From an uncultured Planctomycetaceae bacterium (GTDB taxonomy: Bacteria; Planctomycetota; Planctomycetia; Planctomycetales; Planctomycetaceae): a DNA stretch of 46,097 bases. Location of the stretch: positions 1-46,097 of the forward strand of contig CAJWGB010000015.1 of NCBI GenBank assembly GCA_913031625.1. The letters run 5' to 3'. A program made the translations under genes and the position numbers. The notes below the pieces were generated by a model. The model worked only from the letters and a program-made list of their open reading frames with translations, did not search any database and was not told the DNA's origin. Shown here piece by piece: positions 26,149 to 38,291 of this stretch (position 1 is the stretch's first letter; every line of letters starts with the position of its first letter).

Positions 26149-26347
26149 GAAAATTCTCCGGGAGTCCTGATCGATTCAGTGTACCTCCATGAGGACTACT
26201 GGCGAAATCCACTCGAGGGCTTTCGGCCGGAGTGCTTCAATCTTAGCGGAGCGGCGCGAGCCGTCCGGCCAGGCACGGTTACGAGGCGGCTGCCGATTCG
26301 CTCCATTCGAAACCGCAGCATCGTTTCTCCCGGTCAAAGACCCTGCG

Positions 26348-29300
26348 TTACTTTGCTGACGCAATTGCCTGTTCGGCGAGTTCCCTCGCGCTCATTGTAT
26401 GGACATTGGATCGACCGGTCTGGTCTCGAGTGACCAGCAGATAACGCCCAACGTGCCGTTCGGTGACGCGGGCCTTGGCATCCAGAGGAGCAACAATCAG
26501 CAGCTGCAGTCCAAATCTCTGGAACAGATCAAGAGCGTACTCCGCATACTGGTCGTCAATGCGGCTGAACATCTCGTCCACAACAACGAAGTGGAAACGA
26601 TCGCTCGTCTCAGCGTCCGGATCAATGTCGTACTGATAGGCAATGGCAGCCACCAGAATCGTGAACGCGAGCTTTGCCTTTTCACCGCCCGACTGTCCCG
26701 TGCTGTCCTCGTAGTAGCTGCGTTCTTCACCCGTGGTCGCATCACGTTCCTGCGCTGCAAAATCGAACCACCGCCGAACATCTACCACTTTGCTGCGCCA
26801 GCGAGTCTCGTTCTGAAGACGGTGAATCAGTTTCTGAATCCGTTCAAACTTTGCTTCATCAAGCACAGTGCCGGACTCTTCCATGCAGGCATGCAGCTCC
26901 TGACGGAACTCGAGGATTTCTGAATCCTGCACAGGCCGGGAAACCAGCTGCATGTGAGTTCCGGATCGATACTCCAGTTGCATGAGTGCACTGTTGAGCT
27001 GAGCAATTCGGTCCTCGATCGCAAACCGTTCCTTCTCCAGTTCGCTGTTCAGGAGTCCGAGTTCACGAGCCACCTTCTGATTGAGCCGTTCACGAAATCT
27101 CTGCTCGTGACGTGGCAGATCGTCCGCGCGAATCGACCGCAGCAGTTCGAGGAACGAGTCCAGGTACCGTGGTGAGGGATCGAGATCTCCTCGCGCTTCC
27201 GGAAACTTAACGAGGAACCGACTCATCTCCTTCAGGAGGCGAGTTTCAATGGGCTGCACGGCATTCCGCAGCCGCTGACAGTCACGTTCGCCCGTGCGTC
27301 GGAACTCAGATTCAACAGACGTGAAGTTTTCAGGAAGTAATTCCGTTTGTCCAAGCCGTTCGTGAAGTTCAGCAAAGACTGATTTCAACTCCTCCAGCCG
27401 GCCAGTGTTCTCAAGCTCGTCCAGCATCTGCGCGGCTGAAGAGATCCTGGCATCCGCATGTGCCAGTGCCACCTTCGCTTCGCCCTCCCTCACACCAAGA
27501 GCATCTCGTTCCTGCATCAGCAGATCGAGGTCACTTTGCAGCTGATTGTGTCGTTCACGAAGCACCCTGGCCGTATCATTTTCCGATTCCAGATCCTGCT
27601 TCTCCTGCTGTAGGTCGTGCAGAGCCGACTGGGCAGAGGAAACATCGATGTCAGCGAATACGGAAATCTGCAACGCATCATCGATTTGCTTTAGCTGCTT
27701 CTGAACCTGCTGCTCCGCTTTGCGCAGCTCTGCCAGGGCATCTCCTGTTTCCAGCTGACTCTGCTGAATCCGAGTCAATGCAGCATTCAAATGGGTTCGC
27801 TTTTCCTGGTTCTCCCAGCCCAGAATAAACCCGGCACGGTCGTTGGTATGCTGACGATCATCTTTAATGTGATGATCCTCGTTTCGCACGTGCAGGTCCC
27901 GCGTCATCGCTGGACCATGAAATGCCTGGAAGTCATCCAGCGATTCACAGCATCGGTAGTCATAATGCTCGTGAAGCTCGGCCTCGACCCATGGAAACAG
28001 AGCGTGACTCTCACGCAGCTGCAGCTTGCCAATCATTGACTCCGGATCAGCGACAGATCCTTCCAGCCGTCGCTGACGATGCCGAACTCGGATGTACTCC
28101 AGTTTCTGTGGAGCCCCTTCCGCATCTTCCAGTCGATTGTTGTCGATGTACCGACTGACTTTCCTGTAGATCCGGTCCGAGACCAGCAGGCTCAGGCCCA
28201 GTCGACGCAGCAGCATCTCAATCGAAGCTTCCCACGACTTTTCTGCCGGGCTGACAGAAATCATCTCCGCAGCGAATGGTAAGTCATCCGTTGAAAGTTC
28301 AAGTTGATTGCAGAGTGTCTGTCGCACTTCGATCAGTTGCCGCGGCACGTTGTTTCCCTGCTGCTGAAGCGCTGCGAGCTCGGATCGAATTTCCTGAGCC
28401 TGTTCTTTCAGGTCTGCATTCCTGAGCAGAAGTTCCTCACGTCGATCCTGACGGTCGGCAGAGTGATCGAGACGGTCACGACCGAATTCAAGTTGCCTCC
28501 GCAGCTCGATCAAGTCCCCTGCTGAAGTCAGGGGTTCGATACAGCCCACTGTAGTTGCAGCCGTTTCCAGCAACGTGCGCTGCTTCTGTCGCCGTTTCAG
28601 ATTCTGCTCAGCATCCGCAATGAGACGTGGCAGCTCACTGAGTCGCAGACCACCAGCAGATTCAATCTCATTCTCCACGCGACGCAGTTGTTGCTGACAG
28701 CTGTTAATGTCTGTGCCAATTTGATCTCGGCGCTGACGAATCTCCTGAATGCTGTTCCGGAACCGGCGCGACTCAGGCTGAAAGACCTCCAGTGTCTGCT
28801 GGCAGAAGAAGGCGTCAGTCGCCAGCAGCTGCTGTTCAGCAGATTCAAGTTCTGCCCTGCAGCTGCGCCATTGTCCACCCGTTGACTCAATTGGCTCCAG
28901 AAGCTCCAGCTGATCTCGCACTCGAACAAGCGATCGATGAGACTCACTCAGCTGAGCAAAGTGGGTTAACAGACTATCAACAGTTTTTCCCCATGACCTT
29001 GATTCCAGCATGTGGTCCCGAATGAAATCGTTCAACCGCTGAATGTCACGGACAGCGACCGTCTGGTTCAGCATGTCCATGGCCTTGCCGCGGAAGCCAG
29101 CCACACGCCTGAACCACTCGTGGTACTCCGAGTAGATTTTCGTCGTGCGGAATCCGGCTTCTTTGAGCTGCCCGGTAACTTCACCGCGTTTCAATCCCGA
29201 GAAGTCACGTGTGATCGACGACTCTCGATCGGCAAAGCAGTAAATCTTCTCTGCCTTTCCGTCGGCTGTCATGGATAGTACCTGCGCAAGCGTGAACCAC

Positions 29301-29710
29301 TTGCCCGACGCCGCATTGCAGAAACAGGCCAACAGGACGGAGTAATGAGAATTGCCTGGACGCAGATAAAGAACCTCACCCCCGGACTCGTCGCTGCGAC
29401 TGCGACGATCGTAGGCACCACGAATGTACGAACGCTCATCGCGCTCACGCTTGGCAGCTCCGGCCGCCACGTTGTAGTTGCGAACCGCTGGACGCACCAG
29501 CAGAGTCAGCAGGCTGTCAACCAGCGTTGATTTTCCGGATCCGTTGCGACCGATCAGAAGTGCGGTATCGCCGTCTGTTTCAATACTGGTGATCCGACCC
29601 GGATGATCCGGATGGTGACTGTCGAACGTACCCCAGTTACTGACTTCCAGCCGATGAAGACGGAAGCCTCGAAAGGGTGTTCGGTTCACAGGAGGCAAAT
29701 CTGAGGACAT
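26348..29710 (-). CDS. jetC: JetC: MukB-like SMC ATPase of a Wadjet-type condensin
   Basis: A 1120-residue protein. An N-terminal ATPase half has Walker A GRNGSGKST at 54-62 (Lys60). A long coiled coil (about 260-490 and 640-890) surrounds a hinge-like region (about 475-635) with GFILGWENQEKR. The C-terminal half has the ABC signature SGGEK at 1007-1011 and Walker B FHFVVVDEMFSRID with Asp1045/Glu1046. This is the layout of Wadjet/EptC/MksB proteins, which with MukF- and MukE-like partners extrude DNA loops and sense small circular DNA. It is the third gene of the jetA-jetB-jetC operon, 23 bases after jetB. ATPase motifs are intact. No jetD follows. Confidence 0.9.
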   Translation of the reverse strand: MSSDLPPVNRTPFRGFRLHRLEVSNWGTFDSHHPDHPGRITSIETDGDTALLIGRNGSGKSTLVDSLLTLLVRPAVRNYNVAAGAAKRERDERSYIRGAYDRRSRSDESGGEVLYLRPGNSHYSVLLACFCNAASGKWFTLAQVLSMTADGKAEKIYCFADRESSITRDFSGLKRGEVTGQLKEAGFRTTKIYSEYHEWFRRVAGFRGKAMDMLNQTVAVRDIQRLNDFIRDHMLESRSWGKTVDSLLTHFAQLSESHRSLVRVRDQLELLEPIESTGGQWRSCRAELESAEQQLLATDAFFCQQTLEVFQPESRRFRNSIQEIRQRRDQIGTDINSCQQQLRRVENEIESAGGLRLSELPRLIADAEQNLKRRQKQRTLLETAATTVGCIEPLTSAGDLIELRRQLEFGRDRLDHSADRQDRREELLLRNADLKEQAQEIRSELAALQQQGNNVPRQLIEVRQTLCNQLELSTDDLPFAAEMISVSPAEKSWEASIEMLLRRLGLSLLVSDRIYRKVSRYIDNNRLEDAEGAPQKLEYIRVRHRQRRLEGSVADPESMIGKLQLRESHALFPWVEAELHEHYDYRCCESLDDFQAFHGPAMTRDLHVRNEDHHIKDDRQHTNDRAGFILGWENQEKRTHLNAALTRIQQSQLETGDALAELRKAEQQVQKQLKQIDDALQISVFADIDVSSAQSALHDLQQEKQDLESENDTARVLRERHNQLQSDLDLLMQERDALGVREGEAKVALAHADARISSAAQMLDELENTGRLEELKSVFAELHERLGQTELLPENFTSVESEFRRTGERDCQRLRNAVQPIETRLLKEMSRFLVKFPEARGDLDPSPRYLDSFLELLRSIRADDLPRHEQRFRERLNQKVARELGLLNSELEKERFAIEDRIAQLNSALMQLEYRSGTHMQLVSRPVQDSEILEFRQELHACMEESGTVLDEAKFERIQKLIHRLQNETRWRSKVVDVRRWFDFAAQERDATTGEERSYYEDSTGQSGGEKAKLAFTILVAAIAYQYDIDPDAETSDRFHFVVVDEMFSRIDDQYAEYALDLFQRFGLQLLIVAPLDAKARVTERHVGRYLLVTRDQTGRSNVHTMSARELAEQAIASAK

Positions 29711-29733
29711 GATGGAATCAGACTGGGAAGGAT

Positions 29734-30324
29734 TCAGGAGGGAGAAGCAGCGTTCTTCAACGCATCACGCACAGCTTCCAGCTCTGCAGCGATTACACGG
29801 GCTTTCAAAATTCGGCGAATCTCCCATTCACCAGTGCGGTCTCCGAATCGCCGTACAAATCGCAACGACTCAAGCGTTCGCAGTGCGGCCAGCAGGCTTC
29901 GTCGAAGGCTGACGTCGTCTGACTCGGCGGGAAAGAACGGTCGCCATAGCTGAAACAGCTGATCCGTGTGAATCACACATCGCTCGTTATCGACATCCTG
30001 CTGCTCAAAGCGATGCAGCTCGTCACGAAGCACAACAGTGAGCAGAGTCGCGTCATAACTGAGCTGAGTGCGACGGATCAGGCGAGGCAGCGGAGTACCC
30101 GACACTTCATCGGCTTCCGGTTGCCGCAACCATGCAAGACCCTCGTCGTCATCCACGGCCAGTTGCAGACCAACGATAGAAAAATACTCCTCCAGTGGAG
30201 AGATATTCCGCTGCAGGACATTCCATTGTCTTTCGTCTTCGCGATAGATCACCCCCTGCAGCAGGCGAACTGCTGTCTCACTCCATTCCTGGGTGTCAGA
30301 AGAAGATTGAGCCGACGCACTCAT
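29734..30324 (-). CDS. jetB: JetB: MukE-like DUF4194 protein
   Basis: A 196-residue protein fitting DUF4194, the MukE-like subunit of Wadjet-type complexes. Visible features are ETAVRLLQGVIYREDERQWNVL near the start, the winged-helix-like ISPLEEYFSIVGLQLAVDDDEGLAWL, PLPRLIRRTQLSYDATLLTVVLRDEL, and the C-terminal SLLAALRTLESLRFVRRFGDRTGEWEIRRIL. The subunit bridges the kleisin-like JetA and DNA. Its ATG overlaps the jetA stop by four bases (ATGA), showing translational coupling. It also fits MksE; context with DUF3375 decides for the Jet type. Confidence 0.88.
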   Translation of the reverse strand: MSASAQSSSDTQEWSETAVRLLQGVIYREDERQWNVLQRNISPLEEYFSIVGLQLAVDDDEGLAWLRQPEADEVSGTPLPRLIRRTQLSYDATLLTVVLRDELHRFEQQDVDNERCVIHTDQLFQLWRPFFPAESDDVSLRRSLLAALRTLESLRFVRRFGDRTGEWEIRRILKARVIAAELEAVRDALKNAASPS

Positions 30325-31796
30325 GAGATTGCCATTTCCTCAGAAACAAAAACAACGCGTGGAATGCGAACTACCAGCATGCCGGTCTGCTCCATCGCAC
30401 CAGGAATGACCACATCTTCGGGCAGGCCTCCGTCAATCAGATGGGGGCCCTCCGAGGCCAGCTGCATATATCCAAGCACCTCCATGACGCCTGTTGTGGG
30501 TGGATGCAGCTCCAGCAGTTCATCGAGCGTGATCATGCCACGCTCTGACACCGCTTCCTCCACGTTCGAACGGATTCTTCGAAAGTCGATCCGGGACAGC
30601 CGGGAAAACTCGGCCAGTCCTTCCCCACCCGGCAGTGAGTCTGTGCCGGCACTTGTGAGGTCGATTGTCTCAAACGTCATTGGCGGCGACCAGAATCGAC
30701 GCCCCACCGGCGAATACACTCGCACAGAGTCATCGACGGACAGACTCACACGATCTGTCGGAGGATTTTGAGCCTGACCGGCCGCAAGCGTCTTTATTTC
30801 CTGTAACACCTGTGAAATGCGCTGGCCCTGCTTTTGATTGCCTGGATCCAGAAGTCGCCGAATCGTCGCTGACAGTCTTCGTTCTGTTTCAGTGACACGA
30901 GCAGCCTCAGTCAGGAGTACCGGGAGCATTTGCCGCACAGTCTGGAGTCCATCCTGCTGGTCCGCGAGTTGCTCCAGCTGTTCCAGACTACGAATCAATT
31001 CACGTAGTTGAGACTGGCGATCAGCTGACTGAATGAGCCTGAAGAACTCGTAGAAGCTGACGCCCTGGTCGTCTTCCCGAAGTGAGTCTTCTGCATCCAG
31101 TGCCTGTTCAAGGATGCCGCCTCGTGACTCACCAGCGGCCATCAATTGCTGCTGGACGGTTGCCGTGATCTGTCGAAAGCGTTCCTCCACAGCACGGAAG
31201 TCCCGCTGCAGTTCGCTGAGCAGCGATACGCTCATTCCAAACTGTTCACGGATCCGAGTATCACTGAATCTGGAGGCATCCTCACCCTGCTCGATCGCCC
31301 GGATCTGCTGCTCGATCGCAGCTTTCTGAAGCTTCAGATCAGACACCCGCATATCAGAATCATCAGATGCGCCCACTACGACCTGCCGCAACGAATCGAC
31401 GATTAACCTCAGCCGTGATTCGGTGCCAATGAATCCGAGCTCTCGCTGTTGTGACTGTTCCAGAAACCGGAGCACTTCTTCCGATGCGGAGGTCAACTGG
31501 TAGACTGCTTCTTCGCAGTCTGTTTCCAAAGCTCTTCTCAGCCAGCAGCGATCAGGAGACGACCACTCATTCAGGTAATGCTCAGCACGGTCTGTTAAGA
31601 CATGCGGACAGGATGTATGCACACTCTCCTGAAACGACCGGAGCGCGACCAGAAGTTCAGTGTGAGTCCGCGTGACGGCGACTGGACGTTTGAACTGCGC
31701 GTGCAGAAACGCAGCGACCCACGGCGCGGAAGCGGCGCGCAGAAGGCGGATCGCCGGCGAAGAATCAAAGTGCATTTGCAGCGACTCAGCGTCCAT
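30321..31796 (-). CDS. jetA: JetA: MukF/kleisin-like DUF3375 protein
   Basis: A 491-residue protein from the ATG at 31796; a GTG at 31862 would add 22 unconserved residues. It fits DUF3375, the kleisin-like subunit of Wadjet: SSPAIRLLRAASAPWVAAFLHAQFKRP near the start, a long helical middle (about 150-320) and a C-terminal winged-helix-like region with LDELLELHPPTTGVMEVLGYMQLAS. In known systems it closes the JetC ring and binds JetB. It is the first gene of the operon. No good ribosome binding site is seen, but TATAGT lies six bases before the ATG, so a leaderless transcript is possible. Confidence 0.88.
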   Translation of the reverse strand: MDAESLQMHFDSSPAIRLLRAASAPWVAAFLHAQFKRPVAVTRTHTELLVALRSFQESVHTSCPHVLTDRAEHYLNEWSSPDRCWLRRALETDCEEAVYQLTSASEEVLRFLEQSQQRELGFIGTESRLRLIVDSLRQVVVGASDDSDMRVSDLKLQKAAIEQQIRAIEQGEDASRFSDTRIREQFGMSVSLLSELQRDFRAVEERFRQITATVQQQLMAAGESRGGILEQALDAEDSLREDDQGVSFYEFFRLIQSADRQSQLRELIRSLEQLEQLADQQDGLQTVRQMLPVLLTEAARVTETERRLSATIRRLLDPGNQKQGQRISQVLQEIKTLAAGQAQNPPTDRVSLSVDDSVRVYSPVGRRFWSPPMTFETIDLTSAGTDSLPGGEGLAEFSRLSRIDFRRIRSNVEEAVSERGMITLDELLELHPPTTGVMEVLGYMQLASEGPHLIDGGLPEDVVIPGAMEQTGMLVVRIPRVVFVSEEMAIS

Positions 31797-32099: not shown

Positions 32100-33143
32100 T
32101 TAGCCTGCTTCCCGCATTCGGAGTGAAGGCTTTTCGATGGTGACGATCGTGTTCGGCGCGACGCTGTTGCTCAGCGTGACACTGCTGCCGATTTGACTGC
32201 CGGCGCCAATCACGGTCGTGCCGCCAAGAATCGTTGCGTTGGAGTAAACCGTCACGCCATCTTCAAGCGTTGGGTGTCGCTTGCTGCCGCGGATCAGATT
32301 GCCATCTTCATCGCGAGGAAACGACCATGCTCCCAAAGTGACTCCCTGGTACAGGGTTACTCCGGTGCCGATCTGGCAGGTCTCTCCAATCACGACACCG
32401 GTTCCATGATCGATAAAGAACGACGGGCCAATCTGAGCAGCCGGGTGAATATCGATTCCCGTTTCGCGGTGCGCCCACTCTGTCAAAATCCGAGGCAGAT
32501 AAGGGATTTGCAGCTGGTGCAACTGGTGGGCGACTCGATAGATGCAGATCGCGAAGATTCCGGGGTAGCAAAGCACGATCTCGGCGTTGGTACGCGCGGC
32601 CGGATCACCCTCGAACGCTGCCTGAACATCGGTCATAAGAGTCTGACGAAGCTCAGGAAGAGTGCGCAGAAACTGACGCGTCAGAAAGTCCGCATCAGGC
32701 GGATCGTTCCCATGCAGTTTCAGGGAGACCTGGTGCGAGAGTGATCTCCCGATCTCAATCCGCAGTCGAGAACGAATGCGAGTCAGTAGTTCACTGCATT
32801 CCGCAACCTGAGCGAGATCATTCTCAAGCCGGCGGGTGCGACCAAATCCAGGAAACAGAACCTCCTGAATGTCACGGGCAGCAGCGACAACGCCATCCAC
32901 CGAAGGAAGTGTCTCTCCCGATTCCCCCAGCGATGAGACCAGTTGACCAGCAATGTCGTCCATGGAAACGAGGTCTTCCGGGCGGGAACTCATACGCGGG
33001 GTTCGATTGAGAGAGACAGGGGCGAGTGAAGGGGTTGTCGATACCGGGGGAGGGGACGCTGACTGACCGGAGATTCTCCGTACGAGCCGGCCCACCATGC
33101 CGGCAACGGAGTTTGTCGATGGGGTGTCTGAATCATGGCTCAC
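32100..33143 (-). CDS. cysE: Serine O-acetyltransferase
   Basis: A 347-residue protein starting at GTG 33143, which has GGAG nine bases upstream. The C-terminal left-handed beta-helix of hexapeptide repeats is clear: GIDIHPAAQIGPSFFIDHGTGVVIGE contains Asp231 and His246, spaced as in the catalytic pair of CysE. QGVTLGAWSF and KRHPTLEDGVTVYSNATILGG follow. It acetylates serine with acetyl-CoA, the first step to cysteine. The first 90-100 residues are Ser/Pro-rich and longer than usual, and are followed by the helical SAT N-terminal domain. The neighbours give no operon context. Confidence 0.92.
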   Translation of the reverse strand: MSHDSDTPSTNSVAGMVGRLVRRISGQSASPPPVSTTPSLAPVSLNRTPRMSSRPEDLVSMDDIAGQLVSSLGESGETLPSVDGVVAAARDIQEVLFPGFGRTRRLENDLAQVAECSELLTRIRSRLRIEIGRSLSHQVSLKLHGNDPPDADFLTRQFLRTLPELRQTLMTDVQAAFEGDPAARTNAEIVLCYPGIFAICIYRVAHQLHQLQIPYLPRILTEWAHRETGIDIHPAAQIGPSFFIDHGTGVVIGETCQIGTGVTLYQGVTLGAWSFPRDEDGNLIRGSKRHPTLEDGVTVYSNATILGGTTVIGAGSQIGSSVTLSNSVAPNTIVTIEKPSLRMREAG

Positions 33144-34269: not shown

Positions 34270-34466
34270 CCAGCGTCTGGTCAACGCATAAACGGCGGCG
34301 GCGAATGTTTGAACGCCGCTCCCATCGCACCTCCACGGCGTGGCTCCTGATGGAGCAGGAAATTCTGTCAGGAATCCGCAGCGTCGTGCGCCGCCATTCA
34401 ATTGCACTTCGCGGGGATCAGATTAGGCTTTCTCTGTCACACCCTGCCCTCCCCTCGGAGAGACCA

Positions 34467-37400
34467 ATGCTTCGGAATTCCCTGCCACTCCTGCTTCTGT
34501 TTTCCTCAGTGGCCGCGGCCGACCCTTCTGCCCGCTTCAAGTCCGCCGTTCAAAGGATCCCTGCGTCAGAAAAACAGGTCACGCTGTTCAACGGCAAAGA
34601 CCTCTCCGGCTGGAATGGGGACACGAAATACTGGTCTGTGAACGATGGCATGATTCGTGGCGCCAATTCCGCCCCGGTTCCGTCAAGCAGCTATCTGTTC
34701 ACGAAAGACAGTTATCGCAACTTCCGATTGCTGCTCGAAGTAAAGCAGACGCTGGGCCCGGAATACTCAACCATGCATTCAGCCGTGTGTGCTCTGGGTG
34801 AGCAATTTACCGACAAGGGAGACAACGCGTTTGGGTTCAAAGGCCCCCTGTTGATGTTCTGTCACGACTGGGGCATCTGGGATGCGTATCGCCGAAATCG
34901 AACGGTTGATCGCGGCCCCGGGCCTCAGGTCGAAAAGAAGGGCGACTGGAACCTTGTGGAGATCCTTGTTCAGGGCAATCGAATTCGCTTCGTGGCGAAT
35001 GGACGTCAGGTTTTCGATTTCACTGACAAGCCGGAGATGCTGCAGAATTCTCCCATTGGACTGCAGCTTCACAGTAACGGACGCAAACAGGAGTACCACT
35101 TCCGAGGACTGATCCTCACGAAGAACCCTCAGGATACGCTCGTGACTGCAAAGGAACTCTACACCGGAAAACCGGAGGTGCAGGAATCGGTTGCTCAGGG
35201 AATTAAAGTCGAACAACCGAAACCAGAGCAGGGTTCAAAGATCTCAGACGCAGAATTCAACGCCGGCCCTCGTCCCACGTGGATCTGGGGGAAAGACGAC
35301 AATGCTGACTACACTCTGCGAACAACATTTAAAGCGTCTGGCGTTTCGGCTGCTCGACTGATGGCGTCCAGCGACAACGTCGGAGAAGTGTTCATCAATG
35401 GCAAACGAGTGGCCAGTGGAACGGAATGGTCCAGTCCGATGGTCGCTGAAGTGACGGCAAACCTGAAAGAGGGCGAAAATGAAATCCTTGCCAAAGTGGG
35501 AAACCAGGGAGGCGTTGCCGCCTTTGTGCTGAAGCTGGCAATTCGAGACAGGGACGGCAAAGTTTCGCATGTGGTCAGTGATCTCAACTGGACGACTGCC
35601 ACAAAGAACCTCCAAAACGGTGAGAAGGTCGCCGCACGCGGCCGTTACGGAGATGGCCCATGGGGTCCTGTCTTTGCGAACTCAGCCGGGCACACAGGCC
35701 GCGTACCGCGTGGCGTCTTTGAGACACTGCCCGGTTACAAGGTGGAAAAGCTGTTTCATGTCCCGAAAGACAAACTGGGATCGTGGGTTTGTATCGCTTT
35801 TGACAACAAAGGCCGACTGTTAGCCAGCGATCAGGGCGGCAAAGGAATCTGCCGCATCACTCCGCCACCGCCAGGCAGTGATGCAGAAACTGTTGTCGAA
35901 CATCTCGACTTTTCCAGGTGCGAGGTGAAACCGTCCGGAGCTCAGGGCATGCTCTATGCCTTCGACAGCCTCTATTTCAGCTGTAACGGCGGACCTGGCA
36001 GTGGACTTTATCGAGCCCGAGACCTCGATGGCGACGATCAGTTTGATGAGTGCGTCCTGCTGAAAAAGTTTCAGGGAGGCGGGGAGCATGGCCCGCACTC
36101 AATACGTCTCAGCCCGGATGGACACCGCATTTTTGTGATCGCGGGCAACCATACCGAACCGCCATTCAAAGCAGGCGAAGATCTCGACAACAAACTCTAC
36201 GGAAGTCGTATCGCCTCCAACTGGGGCGAAGACCTGTTGCTGCCGAGGATGTGGGACGCCAACGGGCACGCTCGTGGACGGATGGCGCCCGGTGGCTGGA
36301 TTGCCAGTACGGATGCAGACGGAAAGTCATGGGAGATCTGGAGCATTGGCTACCGGAATCCGTACGACATGGCCTTCAATGCAGACGGAGAGCTGTTTGC
36401 TTACGACGCAGACATGGAATGGGATGTGGGTGCGCCATGGTATCGCCCAACTCGAGTGGTTCACGCGACGCCCGGAAGTGAGTTCGGCTGGCGCAGCGGA
36501 ACCGGCAAGTGGCCAACTTATTATCTCGACAGTCGCCCGCCTGTTGTAGACGTCGGCCCTGGCTCGCCTGTAGGAGTCGACTTCGGCTACGGACTGAAGT
36601 TCCCAGCGAAGTATCAGCGAGCACTTTACATCTGTGACTGGACCTTCGGGACAATGTATGCGATCCACATCACGCCGGATGGAGTCACCTACAAAGCCGA
36701 AAAGGAAGAATTCGTTTCCCGGACACCATTGCCGCTGACCGACTGTGCGGCCGGTCCCGACGGCGCTCTCTACTTTTCTATTGGCGGTCGAGGCAACCAG
36801 TCTGAGCTCTACCGAGTCACTTATGTCGGTGACGAATCAACGGAAGCGGCTGAACTAAAGAATGAAGAGTTTGCTGAAGACCGCACAATCCGGTCAATCT
36901 TCGAAGAGTTTCAGGGCCAACAGGAACTGGACCCCAATGACATCCGAGCGGCAGTTGAGGGACAGGGCATTACCGGAGAAACAGTTCGAGAGGTCATCAA
37001 ACAACCTGCCATGCGTTACGCCATGCGAAGCGTGCTGTCCGGAATGTCCAGTCCCGACTTCCTGGTCATGGGACTCAACGGCCGCAATCGCACGCCCACT
37101 CAGCGGTATGACATTATTGTCACCATTGCGCGAATGCGATTGCCGGATGATCGCCGGTCAGAACTCCTTGATATCTCCCTGAATTCAATGTTGAAGGATG
37201 AGTTCGCCGACCTGCCAGCTGACCTTAAACTTGAGTATCTGAGGACTGCCTCCCTGGCACTCATCCGTCTGGGGAATGGCGAACAGGCAATCAAGACGGA
37301 TGCAGCTCAGGCAATGGCAACGGCAATCGCTCCAGCCTACCCAACGGGCAATCGCGACATCGATCGTGAACTCTGTCAGCTTCTGGTTTATCTGAACGAG

Positions 37401-38291
37401 CCAACCGTCGTTGGTAAAACGGTCAGACTCATGAATGAGGAACCGTATCGAGAAGATATCGATATGGGCGAACTACTGACACGTAACGGAGGCTATGGTC
37501 GAGCAATCAGAAACATGATTGAAAACCAGCCGGACAGGAATCAGGTCTGGTATGCGTTCTGTCTGCGGGTCGCAAAGGCTGGCTGGACGGCACAGTCTCG
37601 AGCCGACTACTTCCGCTGGTTTGCAAAAGCTTCCGAGTGGTCGGGCGGAAACAGCTTCCGCAAGTTCCTGCAGAACATTGAGAATGAAGCGTACGCGAGC
37701 ACGACAGAGAATGAAAAAGTCATGCTGGAAGCACTCAAGGTAAGAGCTCCGTTCCACATGCCCGAGTTGCCGAAACCGAAAGGCCCTGGAAAAGCATGGA
37801 CACTCGAAGAAGTGCGAGCACTCGCCAGAGACGGTCTGAAAGGGCGCAGCTTCGAAAACGGACAGCGAACGTTTGCATCAACGCGATGCGTTCTGTGCCA
37901 TCGGTTCGCCGGCAACGGCGGTGCGACCGGGCCGGATCTGACTCAACTGGCCGGACGTTTCAATGTTGATGCTTTGACCGAAGCCATTCTGGATCCGAGC
38001 AAAGTCATCAGCGATCAGTACCGCGCCAGCAGCGTGCTGACCGACGCCGGAAAAACAGTTAATGGTCGCATCGTTGCCGAGAACGAGGAGCAGATCAGCG
38101 TGCTGACGGATCCGGAAGACAGCACAAAAGTAGTGGACATCAGAAAGTCCGCAATTGAAGAGATCCTGCCTTCTCAGGTTTCAATCATGCCGGCCGACCT
38201 GCTTAAGCCCCTGAATCGGGACGAAGTGCTGGACCTGCTGGCATATCTGCTGTCACGTGGCGACGAGCAAAATCCGATGTTCAAAAAGTAA
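34467..38291 (+). CDS. Secreted DUF1080/beta-propeller/PVC-type cytochrome c mosaic protein
   Basis: A 1274-residue protein from the ATG at 34467 (GGAGAG just upstream), with a signal peptide (about 1-18). Domains in order: DUF1080 glycosidase-like jelly roll (about 35-225, VTLFNGKDLSGWN); a carbohydrate-binding-like beta-sandwich (about 265-395); a PVC-type beta-propeller resembling sugar dehydrogenases (about 420-800, YRNPYDMAFNADGELFAYD); a helical repeat region; and a C-terminal PVC-type heme domain with CVLCH at 1141-1145. A likely role is periplasmic binding and oxidation of a carbohydrate, with electrons passed to the heme. DUF1080 members include 3-keto-disaccharide hydrolases. Substrate is unknown. 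Such mosaics are typical of Planctomycetota. Confidence 0.9.
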   Translation: MLRNSLPLLLLFSSVAAADPSARFKSAVQRIPASEKQVTLFNGKDLSGWNGDTKYWSVNDGMIRGANSAPVPSSSYLFTKDSYRNFRLLLEVKQTLGPEYSTMHSAVCALGEQFTDKGDNAFGFKGPLLMFCHDWGIWDAYRRNRTVDRGPGPQVEKKGDWNLVEILVQGNRIRFVANGRQVFDFTDKPEMLQNSPIGLQLHSNGRKQEYHFRGLILTKNPQDTLVTAKELYTGKPEVQESVAQGIKVEQPKPEQGSKISDAEFNAGPRPTWIWGKDDNADYTLRTTFKASGVSAARLMASSDNVGEVFINGKRVASGTEWSSPMVAEVTANLKEGENEILAKVGNQGGVAAFVLKLAIRDRDGKVSHVVSDLNWTTATKNLQNGEKVAARGRYGDGPWGPVFANSAGHTGRVPRGVFETLPGYKVEKLFHVPKDKLGSWVCIAFDNKGRLLASDQGGKGICRITPPPPGSDAETVVEHLDFSRCEVKPSGAQGMLYAFDSLYFSCNGGPGSGLYRARDLDGDDQFDECVLLKKFQGGGEHGPHSIRLSPDGHRIFVIAGNHTEPPFKAGEDLDNKLYGSRIASNWGEDLLLPRMWDANGHARGRMAPGGWIASTDADGKSWEIWSIGYRNPYDMAFNADGELFAYDADMEWDVGAPWYRPTRVVHATPGSEFGWRSGTGKWPTYYLDSRPPVVDVGPGSPVGVDFGYGLKFPAKYQRALYICDWTFGTMYAIHITPDGVTYKAEKEEFVSRTPLPLTDCAAGPDGALYFSIGGRGNQSELYRVTYVGDESTEAAELKNEEFAEDRTIRSIFEEFQGQQELDPNDIRAAVEGQGITGETVREVIKQPAMRYAMRSVLSGMSSPDFLVMGLNGRNRTPTQRYDIIVTIARMRLPDDRRSELLDISLNSMLKDEFADLPADLKLEYLRTASLALIRLGNGEQAIKTDAAQAMATAIAPAYPTGNRDIDRELCQLLVYLNEPTVVGKTVRLMNEEPYREDIDMGELLTRNGGYGRAIRNMIENQPDRNQVWYAFCLRVAKAGWTAQSRADYFRWFAKASEWSGGNSFRKFLQNIENEAYASTTENEKVMLEALKVRAPFHMPELPKPKGPGKAWTLEEVRALARDGLKGRSFENGQRTFASTRCVLCHRFAGNGGATGPDLTQLAGRFNVDALTEAILDPSKVISDQYRASSVLTDAGKTVNGRIVAENEEQISVLTDPEDSTKVVDIRKSAIEEILPSQVSIMPADLLKPLNRDEVLDLLAYLLSRGDEQNPMFKK

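What the first reader, a model, noticed from the sequence alone, without database searches (positions are those of the whole stretch)
26348..31796. Wadjet-type JetABC condensin operon without the JetD nuclease
Seen: three tightly coupled minus-strand genes whose products fit DUF3375 (JetA), DUF4194 (JetB) and a MukB-like SMC ATPase with intact Walker A, signature and Walker B (JetC). Known: Wadjet defence systems act as JetABCD, in which JetABC extrudes DNA loops and the toprim protein JetD cleaves small circular DNA. Seen: the gene after jetC is a secreted alpha/beta hydrolase 199 bases away, and the gene before jetA is serine acetyltransferase; no DUF3322/DUF2220-like protein is in the window. 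Inference: this may be a nuclease-free chromosome-organising or plasmid-silencing version, or it may use a JetD encoded elsewhere or an unrelated effector.
Basis: partly seen in the sequence, partly recalled or inferred. Interest (0 to 1): 0.75.

Follow-up and report, generated by a model that had tools for sequence, protein, structure and literature searches.

The report
Wadjet SMC motor that lost its nuclease
A planctomycete bacterium carries the intact DNA-looping half of a plasmid-destroying defence system but not the DNA cutter, and its relatives show the cutter has been lost many times while the looping machine was kept, so the machine probably does a job of its own.

Summary
Window 26348-31796 (minus strand) holds an intact type I Wadjet jetABC operon (JetA/DUF3375, JetB/DUF4194, JetC SMC). 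No jetD lies on the 46-kb contig, and none was found in the rest of the 96%-complete genome. This is not a one-off artefact. In the same genus (Fuerstiella), two relatives lack jetD at the very locus where a third has jetABCD, with a shared junction. Complete chromosomes elsewhere in the family (G025, G026, G149) also have JetABC and no JetD. In a sample of Planctomycetota genomes at least 95% complete, 9 of 35 with JetA lack any JetD. On a JetC tree, loss from the genome needs about 12 changes. JetABC stays open and under purifying selection after the loss (dN/dS about 0.1-0.2). In the one trio where it could be measured, its proteins evolve 3.5-4 times faster than in the JetD-bearing sibling. 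Best reading: a former plasmid-cutting system kept as a nuclease-free loop extruder, parallel to P. aeruginosa MksBEF. What it does now is untested. Side finding: Pirellula-like genomes keep jetD as a stand-alone gene away from jetABC ("split Wadjet"), so a missed jetD in the unassembled 4% is not excluded.

The parts
30321..31796 (-). jetA: DUF3375 kleisin-like subunit, 491 aa from the ATG at 31796 (the longest ORF starts at GTG 31862)
   Evidence: Pfam DUF3375 290 bits; PADLOC JetA1 320 bits; start aligned to Fuerstiella JetA MDxSTLLxHF
29734..30324 (-). jetB: DUF4194 KITE subunit, 196 aa; its ATG overlaps the jetA stop
   Evidence: Pfam DUF4194 126 bits; PADLOC JetB1 161 bits; its N-terminal P-E-(F/Y)-R motif is lost (SDTQEW)
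26348..29710 (-). jetC: SMC ATPase, 1120 aa, intact Walker A, signature and Walker B
   Evidence: PADLOC JetC1 1007 bits; nearest solved structure JetC 8as8, E 1.5e-47; ATPase residues conserved
26149..26347 (.). short intergenic stretch where jetD would be expected; no jetD or remnant
   Evidence: no Pfam hit; no homologue at Fuerstiella jet loci
32100..33143 (-). flanking serine acetyltransferase-like gene; with the Rce1-like gene it marks the locus, which carries no jet genes in relatives

Best explanation
This is a type I Wadjet operon that has lost its nuclease gene jetD and is retained as a working, nuclease-free SMC complex. Shown by sequence: the three subunit genes are intact, the ATPase motifs are intact, no jetD is detectable in the 96%-complete genome, and jetD has been lost repeatedly in relatives while JetABC stays under purifying selection. 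Inferred: JetC dimers joined by the JetA kleisin and JetB KITE load on DNA and extrude loops with ATP as in JetABCD, but when extrusion stalls or the two motors meet there is no Toprim partner to cut. The complex then compacts, holds or repositions DNA, most likely the chromosome as a second condensin beside the canonical SMC, as P. aeruginosa MksBEF does, or it restrains small replicons without destroying them.
For: Family and motif matches. No JetD in G000 by three searches, while the same profile finds G014's JetD at E 5e-169. Genus trio: G018 has jetABC then jetD between a sugar ABC transporter operon and uvrA; G016 and G017 have jetABC at the same place without jetD, and their junctions align over 744 nt. 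Complete chromosomes G025, G026, G149 have JetABC and no JetD. 9 of 35 JetA-bearing genomes at least 95% complete lack JetD, p 4e-5 against a 5% missing-gene rate. About 12 changes for presence in the genome, 15 for adjacency, on the JetC tree. dN/dS 0.10-0.13 for G016/G017 and 0.10-0.20 for G025/G026, and no stops although neutral drift would give several to tens. Canonical SMC present in all eight genomes tested. No recurrent replacement gene behind jetC. Literature: a MksBEF that probably arose by JetD loss organises the P. aeruginosa chromosome (PMC10586767, PMC7485682).
Against: No function was measured. The window genome is a 444-contig assembly at 96% completeness, so a relocated jetD could be missing, and relatives do keep jetD in trans. 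In the Fuerstiella trio the proteins evolve 3.5-4 times faster after the loss, which could also mean a slow slide towards loss of function. The window's own JetABC lies at 2.4-3.5 times the G014-G018 distance, whereas control genes lie at 0.7-1.5 times; with its different locus, this could mean horizontal acquisition rather than descent with loss. Other sister comparisons do not all show faster evolution.
Confidence: 0.62

Rival explanations
1. Split Wadjet: jetD exists elsewhere in this genome, in the few percent not assembled, and the system still cuts plasmids in trans.
For: Seven relatives with JetABC lacking an adjacent jetD carry a stand-alone jetD elsewhere with the YWGDLD motif intact; the G121/G130a pair, where G130 has jetD in trans, keeps strong constraint (dN/dS about 0.04).
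Against: No JetD in the 96% assembled; also none in Fuerstiella G016 (97%) and G017 (90%). The window's JetB has lost the N-terminal P-E-(F/Y)-R motif that four of its five genus relatives keep.
Confidence: 0.12
2. Decaying remnant: jetD went first and jetABC is on its way out.
For: JetABC proteins in G016/G017 gained 91 and 82 unique replacements against 23 in JetD+ G018, with equal synonymous change. G027 shows a genuinely broken system: truncated jetB and a distant jetD fragment.
Against: No stops or frameshifts in about 1800 codons after long divergence (neutral simulation gives 4 to 49 stops); dN/dS about 0.1-0.2; ATPase motifs conserved; JetD-less clades several species deep, for example L138/L149/L157/L165.
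Confidence: 0.12
3. An unrelated effector, encoded elsewhere, has replaced JetD.
For: Cannot be excluded by sequence; replacement effectors are common in other defence systems (general knowledge).
Against: Genes after jetC in JetD-less loci do not recur outside close synteny: an ABC exporter, an MnmE-like GTPase, a cytochrome/PQQ protein and others. No defence neighbours were found among the ten window genes scanned, apart from generic ABC-ATPase similarity.
Confidence: 0.08
4. A rival about its history, compatible with the best explanation: the window copy was acquired horizontally, already without jetD, from a Fuerstiella-related donor.
For: It sits beside cysE while relatives carry jet genes at the sugar-transporter locus; excess divergence relative to SMC, cysE and the Rce1-like gene.
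Against: JetC groups with the five Fuerstiella sequences at 100/100 support; accelerated evolution after loss would give the same picture.
Confidence: 0.3

Closest known systems
Wadjet type I (JetABCD)
   Same: JetA, JetB and JetC families, gene order, operon coupling and ATPase motifs
   Different: the Toprim nuclease JetD is absent from the operon and from the assembled genome
Pseudomonas aeruginosa MksBEF condensin
   Same: kleisin-KITE-SMC complex without a nuclease, beside a canonical SMC; [quoted passage not shown]
   Different: the window sequence falls in Wadjet type I (PADLOC JetC1 1007 bits) and loss is repeated within planctomycete genera; function unmeasured
Fuerstiella jetABCD (G014, G018) and jetABC (G016, G017)
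   Same: nearest relatives, 52-57% identical in JetA, JetB and JetC
   Different: other chromosomal locus; G014 and G018 keep jetD
Split Wadjet of Pirellula-like genomes
   Same: no jetD next to jetABC
   Different: a stand-alone jetD lies elsewhere in those genomes; none found here

Membership tests
Wadjet type I | JetA (DUF3375) | tested here: met
   290 bits Pfam, 320 bits PADLOC JetA1
Wadjet type I | JetB (DUF4194) | tested here: met
   126 bits Pfam, 161 bits PADLOC JetB1
Wadjet type I | JetC SMC ATPase with intact motifs | tested here: met
   1007 bits JetC1; motifs
Wadjet type I | JetD (DUF3322 + JetD_C Toprim nuclease) in the operon | tested here: not met
Wadjet type I | JetD anywhere in the genome | tested here: not met
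   none in the 96% assembled; the missing 4% could not be tested
Wadjet type I | restricts small circular plasmids | not testable with these tools
   needs a plasmid assay
MksBEF/MukBEF condensin | SMC-kleisin-KITE operon without a nuclease | tested here: met
MksBEF/MukBEF condensin | sequence closest to MksB/MksE/MksF or MukBEF | tested here: not met
   JetB: DUF4194 126 bits against MksE 47 bits; JetC best matches are JetC1 models; no MukB chain among PDB matches; no joint tree was built
MksBEF/MukBEF condensin | acts in chromosome organisation | not testable with these tools
   needs Hi-C or microscopy

The most novel reading that the evidence does not exclude
Type I Wadjet repeatedly turns into a stand-alone chromosome- or plasmid-organising loop extruder by losing only its nuclease. 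The planctomycete lineages, with about a dozen losses and matched JetD+ siblings, catch the defence-to-housekeeping transition proposed for MksBEF and MukBEF in progress.
Probability: 0.4. Interest if true: 0.75.

Novelty: new variant of a known kind. Interest (0 to 1): 0.5.

Why it matters
How defence SMC complexes and chromosome condensins turn into each other is an open question; JetD loss is the proposed step (PMC10586767). Here that step is seen many times, once at a fixed locus between close species, with a measurable change in protein evolution. This gives natural pairs in which to ask what JetABC does without a nuclease. It also warns that annotation rules requiring all four genes (PADLOC, PMC9252829) set aside about a quarter of the JetA-bearing genomes in this phylum, and that some of those are split systems rather than losses.

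Tried and rejected
1) JetB N-terminal motif as a general marker of JetD loss: the reported JetD contact is an IFDR motif at the JetB N-terminus (PMC10586767). Planctomycete JetBs have PE(F/Y)R(D/E) near that place. The window (SDTQEW) and G017 (PEHCEW) have lost it, but many JetD-less rows keep it and several JetD+ rows deviate from it, and the solved structures did not align over it, so it is only a hint. 2) Faster evolution as a general rule after loss: strong in the Fuerstiella trio, but G025/G026 and G149 do not show it on the JetC trees. 3) JetB evolving especially fast relative to JetA and JetC: not significant. 4) A replacement effector after jetC: no recurrent gene. 5) Empty-site comparison at cysE: the cysE-Rce1 pair is conserved but the other neighbours are not, so the insertion event could not be reconstructed. 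7) Deep 2022 and Petrushenko 2011 were not held.

Full report
OBSERVATION. JetB's ATG overlaps the jetA stop, and 23 nt separate jetB from jetC. Pfam gives DUF3375 (290 bits), DUF4194 (126 bits) and AAA_29 plus SbcC_Walker_B. PADLOC gives JetA1, JetB1 and JetC1 (320, 161 and 1007 bits), with JetC2 far behind (28 bits), so this is type I. The nearest solved JetC is 8as8 (E 1.5e-47). Walker A, signature and Walker B are intact and conserved in an alignment that mixes JetD+ and JetD- relatives. The flanks are ordinary: genes that look like rpsB and tsf and a possible hydrolase on one side, a serine-acetyltransferase-like gene and an Rce1-like protease on the other.

NO JETD. JetD_C (PF09983) has no match in the whole genome even at E 10, and DUF3322 gives only noise. 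A profile of 14 planctomycete JetDs finds none in G000 while it finds G014's at E 5e-169. tblastn of eight JetDs finds no credible remnant in the window. The genome is a 444-contig assembly at 96% completeness, so absence is likely but not proven.

RELATIVES IN THE SAME GENUS. The window's genus contains contigs whose lengths match records titled Fuerstiella (G016, G017 and G018 = L118, L117 and L124). G014 and G018 have jetABCD beside a sugar ABC transporter operon. G016 and G017 have jetABC at that same place; after jetC come a hydrolase and a uvrA-like gene, which in G018 lie behind jetD and a few other genes. The G016 and G017 junctions align with each other over 744 nt, and essentially only their hydrolase side aligns with G018. 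JetC places G016 and G017 as sisters (100/99), with G018 next. The simplest reading is one deletion of jetD in the G016/G017 ancestor. The window's own operon sits elsewhere, beside cysE, a place that carries no jet genes in the seven other genomes.

HOW GENERAL. In the order, JetD-less rows are scattered among JetD+ rows on the JetC tree. Complete chromosomes G025, G026 and G149 have JetABC and no JetD. In a GTDB-wide scan, 26 of 75 related loci had at least 2.5 kb behind jetC and no jetD, 42 had jetD, and 7 were undecidable. Adjacency needs 15 changes on the tree; presence anywhere in the genome needs 12 after uncertain rows are set aside. Among 396 Planctomycetota genomes at least 95% complete, I count 35 with a strong JetA match, of which 9 have no JetD_C match; with a 5% chance of a missing gene that has p 4e-5.

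SPLIT SYSTEMS. Genome-wide searches of the JetD-less loci showed that seven of these genomes do have a full-length jetD, alone among unrelated genes: G174, G177, G179, G181, G182, G188 and G175. The six Pirellula-like ones form a clade of JetDs with intact YWGDLD motifs, and three keep the same neighbours. So a jetD-less operon can mean relocation as well as loss, and this is the main functional rival for the window.

SELECTION AFTER LOSS. dN/dS between genomes that share a loss is 0.10-0.13 (G016/G017) and 0.10-0.20 (G025/G026), against 0.06-0.21 for JetABC of JetD+ pairs. A neutral simulation of the three genes gives on average 4 to 49 internal stops for 0.02 to 0.4 substitutions per site; the real genes have none. 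JetABC is therefore kept by selection without JetD. The constraint has changed in the trio that allows a test: replacements unique to G016, G017 and G018 are 91, 82 and 23 in JetABC, while synonymous changes are 103, 101 and 96 and control genes 39, 29 and 30 (p 1e-7 against synonymous, 1.6e-4 against controls, 1.3e-4 with SMC added). This was tested on one trio only, and other sister comparisons are mixed. For the window itself, JetABC lies at 2.4-3.5 times the G014-G018 distance from its relatives, while SMC, cysE and the Rce1-like gene lie at 0.7-1.5 times; faster evolution after loss and horizontal arrival both fit.

MECHANISM. From the literature: JetABC is modelled to extrude loops and JetD cuts when extrusion on a small circle is complete; all four genes are needed for plasmid restriction in B. 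subtilis (PMC10586767, PMC12287153). Inferred here: without JetD the motor still loads, extrudes and turns over ATP, and the outcome is DNA holding or compaction instead of cleavage. Every genome tested also has a canonical SMC, so this would be an accessory condensin, as MksBEF is in P. aeruginosa (PMC7485682). That complex is itself thought to have lost JetD (PMC10586767), so the kind is known; the repeated, locus-matched losses with measured selection are what is added here. No recurrent gene stands in for jetD.

LIMITS. The 80-row trees used a quick search; many genomes are metagenome assemblies; no tree joined JetC with MksB and MukB; completeness figures are as reported by the tool; and no function was tested.

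Noticed in passing
G174:C39:41111-42259, G177:C5:12340-13497, G179:C82:4019-5170, G181:C289:1346-2497, G182:C225:10983-12152, G188:C73:2492-3661 (L202-L207): Stand-alone jetD genes far from jetABC in Pirellula-like genomes (split Wadjet), with intact Toprim motifs and, in three genomes, the same neighbours. The JetDs of G182 and G188 are close while their JetCs are not, as if jetABC had been exchanged around a resident jetD.
   Followed up: partly
G130:C132 and C325 (L092, L093), G133:C25 (L099): Orphan jetD genes in genus g50. In G130 the jetABC lies on another contig, followed by a 1211-aa protein that reads like a TIR-NACHT-WD40 protein. G133 has a truncated jetD next to a possible DNA methyltransferase and no JetA.
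   Followed up: partly
G027:C1:6501956-6535401 (L074, L075): A broken Wadjet in a complete chromosome: jetA and a truncated jetB, with a jetD fragment containing a stop about 32 kb away.
   Followed up: no
L072:7678-8241: A Uma2/DUF820-like gene sits between jetC and jetD in Fuerstiella G018; another lies behind jetC in L143.
   Followed up: no
window 30260-30324: The window's JetB has lost the N-terminal P-E-(F/Y)-R motif that most planctomycete JetBs keep near the reported JetD contact.
   Followed up: partly
window 34305-38291: A 1328-aa protein joining a 3-keto-disaccharide hydrolase domain, sugar-binding-like domains and a C-terminal cytochrome c domain.
   Followed up: no
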